DNA of 64,000 nt from Cryoendolithus antarcticus (Eukaryota > Ascomycota > Dothideomycetes > Cladosporiales > Cladosporiaceae), in assembly GCA_002077065.1 (NCBI GenBank), contig NAJO01000002.1, positions 620,001 through 684,000 of the forward strand, read 5' to 3'. The position numbers and the translations under genes were made by a program. A model generated the notes under the pieces. The model made no database searches. It worked only from the letters and a program-made list of their open reading frames with translations, and had not been told where the DNA came from. Positions 52,623-54,542 of this stretch are shown in pieces. Numbering within the stretch: position 1 is the first letter of the stretch; every line of letters starts with the position of its first letter.

Positions 52623-54542
52623 ATGGGTTCCACCGCCGACACCGACCCCCAAACGGGGTCCATCTTCTCCATCTCAGGTCCCGTCATCGTCGCCGAGAAC
52701 ATGATCGGCTGCGCCATGTACGAGCTCTGCAAAGTCGGCCACGACAACCTCGTCGGTGAAGTTATCCGCCTAGATGCCGACAAAGCCACCATCCAAGTCT
52801 ACGAGGAGACTGCCGGCGTCACTGTAGGCGATCCTGTGATCCGCACTGGCAAGCCGTTGTCAGTCGAGCTTGGACCGGGGTTGATGGAGACGATATACGA
52901 TGGGATTCAGCGGCCGTTGAAGAGTATTGCTGAGGTCAGCGATAGTATTTATATCCCGAGGGGTGTGGATGTGCCGAGTTTGAACAGGGAGAAGAAGTGG
53001 AAGTTCACGCCTAGTGATAAGTTCAAGGAGGGTGATCACATCACGGGAGGCGACTGCTTTGGTACGGTCTACGAGAACAGTCTGCTAGATGTCCATCGCA
53101 TTCTACTTCCCCCTAGAGCAAAGGGAACGATCAAGAAGATGCCCAAGGAGGGCGAGTACACTGTTGACACCGAGATCTTGTAGCTGGATTTCGAGGGCAA
53201 GTCGTCGAAGTACAGCATGATGCACCAGTGGCCGGTGCGTGTGCCCAGGCCGACTGCGGAGAAGCTGTCCTCGCAGGAGCCGTTCATTGTCGGGCAGAGA
53301 GTGTTGGATGCGCTGTTCCCTAGTGTGCAGGGTGGGACTGTGTGCATTCCTGGCGCTTTTGGGTGTGGCAAGACCGTCATCTCGCAGTCTGTGTCAAAGT
53401 TCTCGAACAGTGATATAATTATCTATGTTGGATGGTGAGTGACTGTCGTGGATCAGAACTGCGAATGGGAGCTGACTTATGATAGTGGCGAGCGTGGCAA
53501 CGAGATGGCTGAAGTGTTGATGGATTTCCCAGAGGTGAGTACACTTCTCAGAGCCACAGATCAACAACACTGACAAGTCATACAGCTCACAATCGACATC
53601 GACGGCCGCAAGGAGCCCATCATGAAGCGTACCTGCCTCATTGCCAACACCTCCAACATGCCAGTGGCAGCCCGTGAGGCTTCCATCTACACTGGGATTA
53701 CAGTAGCTGAATATTTCCGCGATCAGGGCAAGGATGTCGCTATGATGGCCGACTCCACCTCCCGCTGGGCTGAGGCCCTTCGTGAGATCTCCGGTCGTCT
53801 CGGAGAGATGCCGGCAGATCAAGGTTTTCCTGCCTATTTGGGAGCCAAGCTCGCCTCCTTCTACGAGCGTGCCGGCCGTGTCGTCGCGCTCGGCTCACCA
53901 GACCGCAAAGGCTCCGTCTCCATCGTCGGCGCCGTTAGCCCGCCAGGTGGCGATTTCTCTGATCCAGTCACCAGCTCCACGCTCGGTATCGTGCAAGTCT
54001 TCTGGGGTCTTGATAAGAAGCTCGCCCAGCGCAAGCACTTCCCCTCAATCAATACCTCGCAGTCCTACACAAAGTACACCTCAGCCCTGCAGCCGTACTA
54101 CGCCAAGAACAACCCCGAGTTCCCTCAGCTCGCCAACCGCATCAAAGAGCTTCTATCCAACTCCGAAGAACTCGACCAAGTCGTGCAGCTAGTCGGCAAG
54201 TCCGCGCTCGGCGACCCCGATAAGATCACTCTCGACACCGCTACCTTGATCAAAGAAGATTTCCTGCAGCAGAACGGGTACTCTGACTACGACCAGTTCT
54301 GCCCTATGTGGAAGACGTTCTGGATGATGAAAAACATGATGGCGTATCACGATGAGGCGCAGAAGGCGATTGGGCAGGGCCAGAACTGGAGCAAGGTGAG
54401 GGAGGCTACGAGTGAGATTCAGAATGGTCTGAGGAATATGAAGTTCGAGTTGCCGAATGAGGGAGAGGAGGCGATTGTGAAGAAGTACGAGGAGCTGAAT
54501 TCGAAGTTGATGGAGAAATTTGCGGGGGTTGTTGATGAGTAG
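52623..54542 (+). CDS. VMA1: V-type proton ATPase catalytic subunit A, with an in-frame TAG at codon 187
   Basis: Three exons, 52623-53434, 53486-53534 and 53586-54542, with two 51-nt introns (GTGAGT donors, GATAG and TACAG acceptors), give 605 codons. All hallmarks are present: GSIFSISGPVIVAENMIGCA, the P-loop GAFGCGKTVISQS, CGERGNEMAEVLMDFPE and MADSTSRWAEALREISGRLG, then GSVSIVGAVSPPGGDFSDPV. The frame is broken once, by TAG at 53181-53183, between VDTEIL and LDFEGKSSKYSMM. Relatives carry Glu at that place, and no plausible intron removes it without losing frame. From family knowledge this is the ATP-hydrolysing V1 subunit that acidifies vacuoles. If the stop is real, only a 186-residue fragment would be made without readthrough. 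The first intron splits the Cys codon where yeast VMA1 carries its intein. Confidence 0.93.

What the first reader, a model, noticed from the sequence alone, without database searches (positions are those of the whole stretch)
53181..53183. In-frame TAG inside an otherwise perfect V-ATPase subunit A gene
Codon 187 of VMA1 is TAG, flanked by intact conserved sequence (VDTEIL before, LDFEGKSSKYSMM after), and all catalytic motifs lie downstream. Relatives have Glu here. No in-phase intron of normal size removes it: a GT at the stop itself could pair with an AG only 36 nt away, and the 49-nt option breaks frame. A loss of VMA1 would severely harm vacuolar acidification, so a second gene copy, programmed readthrough, RNA editing or a base error must be considered.
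Basis: partly seen in the sequence, partly recalled or inferred. Interest (0 to 1): 0.75.

Follow-up and report, generated by a model that had tools for sequence, protein, structure and literature searches.

The report
Broken spare copy of proton-pump gene
One of two copies of an essential proton-pump gene in a fungus with a doubled genome carries a premature stop signal, and an intact second copy elsewhere in the same genome explains why this is probably harmless and ordinary.

Summary
In detail: codon 187 of the V-ATPase subunit A gene (VMA1) at 53181-53183 is TAG, inside an otherwise intact three-exon gene. The same genome (46.97 Mb) holds a second VMA1 on contig C1: intact, 605 aa, same neighbours, agreeing with the window copy at 186 of 186 residues before the stop and 410 of 418 after it. 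The region is duplicated (about 56.7 of 64 kb aligns to C1), and the gene set looks doubled. So one copy of a duplicated pair has a nonsense codon while the other can supply the protein. The C1 protein is identical to one labelled Rachicladosporium sp. (Antarctic black fungus). The sequence after the stop still bears the mark of purifying selection (dN/dS about 0.03 for the pair), so the stop is very recent or a base error. Introns, recoded TAG and a suppressor tRNA found no support; the tRNA survey was incomplete. A-to-I editing (UAG in a predicted hairpin loop, U before it) is not excluded but unlikely: it would put Trp where relatives have Glu. I file it as a recent nonsense allele of one homeolog: probably real, but ordinary.

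The parts
53181..53183 (+). in-frame TAG, codon 187 of VMA1 (299 if counted from the upstream ATG at 52287)
   Evidence: only internal stop of 36 long homeolog matches with at least 36 of 40 identical residues on both sides
52623..53434 (+). VMA1 exon 1 (PF02874 beta-barrel domain, PF16886 barrel-sandwich domain and start of the nucleotide-binding domain)
   Evidence: domain limits also from the relative P0003
53486..53534 (+). VMA1 exon 2
53586..54542 (+). VMA1 exon 3, ending with the normal stop TAG at 54540-54542
53435..53485 (+). intron 1, 51 nt, donor GTGAGT
53535..53585 (+). intron 2, 51 nt, donor GTGAGT
52287..52622 (+). in-frame 112-codon extension upstream of the VMA1 ATG, open and the same length in both copies
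50644..52059 (+). upstream neighbour (stop-to-stop frame), CoA-transferase family III; conserved neighbour in both copies; ends in TAG
55072..57027 (+). downstream neighbour (stop-to-stop frame), dynamin-family GTPase; conserved neighbour in both copies

Best explanation
The window holds one of two homeologous copies of VMA1 in a black fungus with a doubled (about 47 Mb) genome. This copy has very recently acquired a nonsense codon and most likely makes no working subunit A. The message is probably degraded, or gives a 186- or 298-residue fragment without the catalytic domain (inferred). The intact copy on another contig supplies the V-ATPase. Shown: the stop in the assembly, the intact homeolog, the duplicated surroundings, and purifying selection on the pair. 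Inferred: that the stop is in the DNA and not a base error, that this copy is non-functional, and that the other is expressed.
For: A second VMA1 on C1 is intact: 186 of 186 residues identical before the stop, 410 of 418 after it. A genome-wide search with a full-length VMA1 protein finds only these two VMA1 loci; its four other matches are weak (24-39% identity). Pfam PF00006 gives matches at eight loci; the six that are not VMA1 were paired by reciprocal comparison and called F1 alpha, F1 beta and V-ATPase B from recalled motifs. About 56.7 of the 64 kb aligns to C1:1125001-1205000, the first 15 kb or so in opposite orientation to the rest (sum). Both copies keep the CoA-transferase III and dynamin neighbours. 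Weak support: 11 of 15 anticodons in the 30 best tRNA loci occur twice or more. The organism fits Rachicladosporium: 47.4 Mb and 18,781 genes in R. antarcticum (PMC5502844) against 24.6 Mb and 10,933 proteins in another Rachicladosporium (PMC12560822, passages). Recent date: dN 0.015, dS 0.489 for the pair (codon 187 left out). If the window copy had drifted neutrally since the stop, at most 3.1% (5 replacements) or 4.2% (all 8) of its lineage's divergence can have passed (95% bounds); measured against C1 and P0003 together, 6 of the 8 are peculiar to the window copy. Only 1 of 8 replacements lies at one of the 412 of 605 positions with at least 90% conservation (binomial p 0.002).
Against: The same signs of purifying selection are expected if the stop is a base error, or if the full protein is still made by editing or readthrough. 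No reads, RNA or other strain's copy of this locus could be examined. No other mark of decay (second stop, damaged splice site, frameshift) was seen in the gene. Six of eight replacements being peculiar to the window copy hints at some asymmetry, but the number is too small to weigh.
Confidence: 0.7

Rival explanations
1. The TAG is an assembly or sequencing error, and both VMA1 copies are intact in the organism.
For: The rest of the gene is flawless and under purifying selection. No other stop in the region has at least 36 of 40 identical residues on both sides (36 matches one way, 40 the other). If the assembly is the published R. antarcticum one, it came from MiSeq reads at 41x (PMC5502844).
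Against: The frame is kept, so it is a substitution and not an indel, and it is not borrowed from the homeolog, which has a sense codon there. Illumina consensus substitutions are rare (recalled).
Confidence: 0.2
2. A-to-I mRNA editing turns UAG into UGG (Trp), so the copy is restored in some stage or stress (premature-stop correction, as in Fusarium PUK1, AMD1 and CHE1).
For: U precedes the A and G follows it, and the A lies in a 7-nt loop closed by 8 predicted pairs in a 41-nt fold; only 9 of 588 second-codon positions of exons 1 and 3, this one included, sit in a loop with a stem of 8 or more. Fungal editing prefers U at -1 and hairpin loops (PMC11156358, PMC11169179, passages).
Against: The hairpin is not in the best structure of 101 nt, and 20 of 200 shuffles fold at least as well. 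The homeolog's RNA forms the same stem, so it is a by-product of coding. 221 of 588 positions lie in some hairpin loop. Editing gives Trp where 116 of 120 relatives have Glu and 4 Thr. The passages I read report genome-wide editing in Sordariomycetes and Pyronema confluens and none found in Aspergillus nidulans and Botrytis cinerea fruiting bodies; the word Dothideomycetes occurs 0 times in that review.
Confidence: 0.03
3. The stop is read through by the ribosome, or TAG is partly decoded by a suppressor tRNA.
For: The downstream frame stays intact under selection. ARAGORN called one tRNA with anticodon TTA (L048), which taken at its word could read stop codons.
Against: TAG is the terminator of both VMA1 copies and of both upstream neighbours. 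No tRNA with anticodon CTA among 47 called by ARAGORN (30 of 30 loci, 17 of 20); 3 of the 53 matches were not run, and that list is itself incomplete. I re-read L048 as tRNA-Leu(TAG) one base out of register (inference from the sequence). Constant readthrough for a catalytic subunit is not known to me in fungi, and the site is not the short UGA context described for fungi (PMC4207609, title and start of abstract in a listing).
Confidence: 0.04
4. An unrecognised intron removes the stop.
For: 49 frame-keeping GT-AG pairs of 36-250 nt exist.
Against: None has a GTRNGT donor; both introns of the gene model do. Each would delete 12 or more codons that the homeolog and the family align straight through.
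Confidence: 0.01

Closest known systems
Loss of one homeolog by nonsense mutation after whole-genome doubling or hybridisation
   Same: Two syntenic diverged copies, one with a premature stop, the other intact
   Different: So recent that no further decay is seen; real presence in DNA not yet proven
Hybrid, highly heterozygous doubled genomes of black fungi, e.g. Hortaea werneckii (PMC7601665 abstract; PMC7325687 passages)
   Same: Doubled gene set with diverged subgenomes
   Different: Another lineage; here VMA1 differs at 167 of 1812 coding bases. Searches on Rachicladosporium with duplication terms listed 1 and 6 papers; in the passages I saw of two of them (PMC11412873; PMC12560822) its ploidy is not analysed, though the first notes higher protein counts than expected for genome size
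Premature-stop-correction genes of Fusarium edited from UAG to UGG (PMC11156358, PMC11169179, passages)
   Same: In-frame TAG, U at -1, predicted hairpin loop
   Different: Relatives have Glu, not Trp; an intact second copy exists; whether the site is conserved in other strains could not be tested; no RNA data

Membership tests
V-ATPase catalytic subunit A (VMA1) | four Pfam domains PF02874, PF16886, PF00006, PF22919 with Walker A GAFGCGKT | tested here: met
   all four found in the window pieces before and after the stop; motif; relative P0003 has the same four, and matches solved V-ATPase A subunits such as 6o7v and 3j9t
Recent nonsense pseudogene of a homeologous pair | in-frame stop before the catalytic domain | tested here: met
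Recent nonsense pseudogene of a homeologous pair | intact syntenic second copy in the same genome | tested here: met
Recent nonsense pseudogene of a homeologous pair | relaxed constraint after loss | tested here: not met
   dN/dS 0.03 for the pair; 1 of 8 replacements at conserved sites; compatible only with a very recent loss
Recent nonsense pseudogene of a homeologous pair | stop present in reads; no full-length product | not testable with these tools
   no reads, RNA or proteome
A-to-I premature-stop-correction gene | UAG with U at -1 in a hairpin loop | tested here: inconclusive
   seen in the 41-nt fold, lost in the 101-nt fold; homeolog has the same stem
A-to-I premature-stop-correction gene | edited residue Trp fits the family | tested here: not met
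   Glu 116, Thr 4 of 120
A-to-I premature-stop-correction gene | A/G mixture in RNA | not testable with these tools
   no RNA data
Recoded TAG / suppressor tRNA | TAG not used as a terminator | tested here: not met
   TAG ends four gene copies here
Recoded TAG / suppressor tRNA | tRNA with a TAG-reading anticodon | tested here: inconclusive
   no CTA anticodon in 47 ARAGORN calls, one TTA call that I re-read as tRNA-Leu(TAG); survey incomplete

The most novel reading that the evidence does not exclude
The second VMA1 of this Antarctic fungus is a conditional gene: its UAG, held in a hairpin loop, is edited to UGG in a particular stage or stress, giving a Trp-187 subunit A isoform on demand. 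This would be the first such case in a Dothideomycete that I know of (recalled; looked for only in the listing and the passages).
Probability: 0.02. Interest if true: 0.75.

Novelty: new member of a known kind. Interest (0 to 1): 0.17.

Why it matters
It shows that a 'broken essential gene' in a fungal assembly should first be checked for a homeolog. If the stop is real, it catches a duplicated genome at the start of losing one copy of a core ATPase subunit, which gives a small natural test of how fast redundancy is lost in doubled black-fungus genomes.

Tried and rejected
Hortaea werneckii was my first guess for the organism, from the doubled gene set; the protein search pointed to Rachicladosporium / Oleoguttula instead, so the Hortaea papers serve only as a parallel.

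A stop seen in one F1-beta copy (L015) turned out, on reading the sequence, to lie in its first intron and was dropped. Other stops lie in shorter or less well matching frames, several of them antisense; I did not resolve each.

ARAGORN called one tRNA with anticodon TTA (L048). I reject it as a suppressor: with a symmetric GCTAGC stem the register shifts by one and the anticodon reads TAG, an ordinary tRNA-Leu; a partner on C60 is 99% identical over 76 of its 92 bases. This re-reading is my inference. A first ARAGORN run used a wrong intron setting and was replaced.

Searches for a separately deposited truncated protein (N part, C part) showed none labelled Rachicladosporium among the best 120 listed. 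The database is clustered at 90%, so this says little. The binomial and neutral-drift calculations assume equal rates on both branches and use no outgroup DNA; the figure of 5 window-derived replacements was my estimate by eye.

The scan used stop-to-stop frames, not curated genes: 3 of 36 and 10 of 40 matches carried some interior stop; apart from VMA1 none had at least 36 of 40 identical residues on both sides. Frameshifts were not scanned. A first version of this scan, judged by codon position, was swamped by antisense frames and not used.

Full report
Observation. The window encodes VMA1 on the + strand in exons 52623-53434, 53486-53534 and 53586-54542; codon 187 is TAG and the gene is otherwise open with GT-AG introns. 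The stop falls in the barrel-sandwich domain PF16886, before the Walker A motif at codon 244. In the best 120 of 7,996 homologues the column is Glu in 116 and Thr in 4.

Second copy. The window is G000:C62:620001-684000 of a 46,965,068-base genome in 149 contigs. Pfam PF00006 has matches at eight loci. Two are VMA1. The other six were fetched and paired by reciprocal comparison; I call them F1 alpha, F1 beta and V-ATPase B from recalled motifs. A search with a full VMA1 protein finds two VMA1 loci and four weak matches of 24-39% identity. The C1 copy has no internal stop, 605 codons, and the same three exons. It agrees with the window copy at 186 of 186 residues before codon 187 and 410 of 418 after it. 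The upstream CoA-transferase III gene and the downstream dynamin gene flank both. About 56.7 of the window's 64 kb aligns to C1:1125001-1205000, in blocks of about 70-88% identity, the first 15 kb in opposite orientation to the rest (sum). In the 30 best tRNA loci 11 of 15 anticodons occur twice or more, which is weak support since tRNA genes are often repeated anyway. I take this as a doubled genome with diverged subgenomes.

Organism. The C1 protein is identical over 605 aa to P0002, labelled Rachicladosporium sp. CCFEE 5018, which differs at 1 of 112 residues in its N-terminal extension; P0003, labelled Oleoguttula sp. CCFEE 5521, differs at 3 of 605. R. antarcticum CCFEE 5527 is reported at 47.4 Mb, 267 contigs and 18,781 genes, MiSeq 41x (PMC5502844, text read, part 1 of 2). 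Another Rachicladosporium has 24.6 Mb and 10,933 proteins (PMC12560822, passages). That the window is R. antarcticum or a close strain is my inference.

How old. Leaving codon 187 out, the two copies differ at 167 of 1812 coding bases, dN 0.015 and dS 0.489. If the window copy had evolved neutrally since the stop, the few replacements allow at most 3.1% (5 replacements) or 4.2% (all 8) of its lineage's divergence (95% bounds); 6 of the 8 are peculiar to the window copy when C1 and P0003 are both compared. One of the eight replacements is at a position conserved in at least 90% of homologues, though 412 of 605 positions are so conserved (p 0.002). The stop is therefore very young, or not in the DNA, or the protein is still made.

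Is it unusual locally? Of 36 non-overlapping long matches (13,373 aligned codons) from homeolog open frames to the window, VMA1 is the only one with a stop flanked by at least 36 of 40 identical residues on each side; the reverse comparison gave 0 of 40. Frames were not curated and frameshifts were not scanned.

Introns, recoding, suppressors. No frame-keeping GT-AG pair with a GTRNGT donor removes the TAG (0 of 49). TAG terminates both VMA1 copies and both CoA-transferase copies. No CTA-anticodon tRNA was called among 47. The list of 53 scored only 63 of 986 candidates, and 3 of the 53 were not run through ARAGORN. One call of anticodon TTA (L048) I re-read as tRNA-Leu(TAG) (inference).

Editing. 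UAG is preceded by U and lies in a predicted 7-nt loop with an 8-pair stem in a 41-nt fold (z -1.38; 20 of 200 shuffles as good), but not in the best 101-nt fold. Of 588 second-codon positions in exons 1 and 3, this one included, 9 have such a long stem and 221 lie in some hairpin loop. The intact homeolog's RNA forms the same stem. Editing would give Trp, unseen in 120 relatives. The review passages read name Sordariomycetes and Pyronema for genome-wide editing (PMC11156358); rare hyphal editing of a premature stop is known in Fusarium (PMC11169179, passages).

Verdict. A single nonsense codon in one of two homeologous VMA1 genes, most likely a recent loss of a redundant copy; a base error is the main rival. 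A search for VMA1 with a premature stop in fungi listed four papers, none on this subject by title.

Noticed in passing
window 52287-52622: An in-frame 112-codon extension (MLGLRPRPQLRARQSF...) precedes the usual VMA1 ATG in both copies, open and of equal length, dN 0.12 and dS 0.35. 60 of 120 homologues have an extension of at least 40 aa and 26 of these begin with ML. The usual ATG has the stronger-looking start context, so a long and a short isoform by leaky scanning seem possible; the arginine-rich start recalls a mitochondrial targeting sequence (recalled, untested).
   Followed up: partly
window 1-64000 against G000:C1:1125001-1205000: About 56.7 of 64 kb is duplicated on C1; the first 15.2 kb lies in opposite orientation relative to the rest, with a break near window 15200-17000.
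   Followed up: partly
L048 (G000:C2:369256-369347): ARAGORN reports a 'tRNA-Stop (tta)', most likely a tRNA-Leu(TAG) read one base out of register because of a symmetric anticodon stem and an intron.
   Followed up: partly
P0003, P0004, P0008, P0013: Several black-fungus VMA1 proteins are named 'vacuolar protein sorting-associated protein 1' in public records, a likely mislabel.
   Followed up: no
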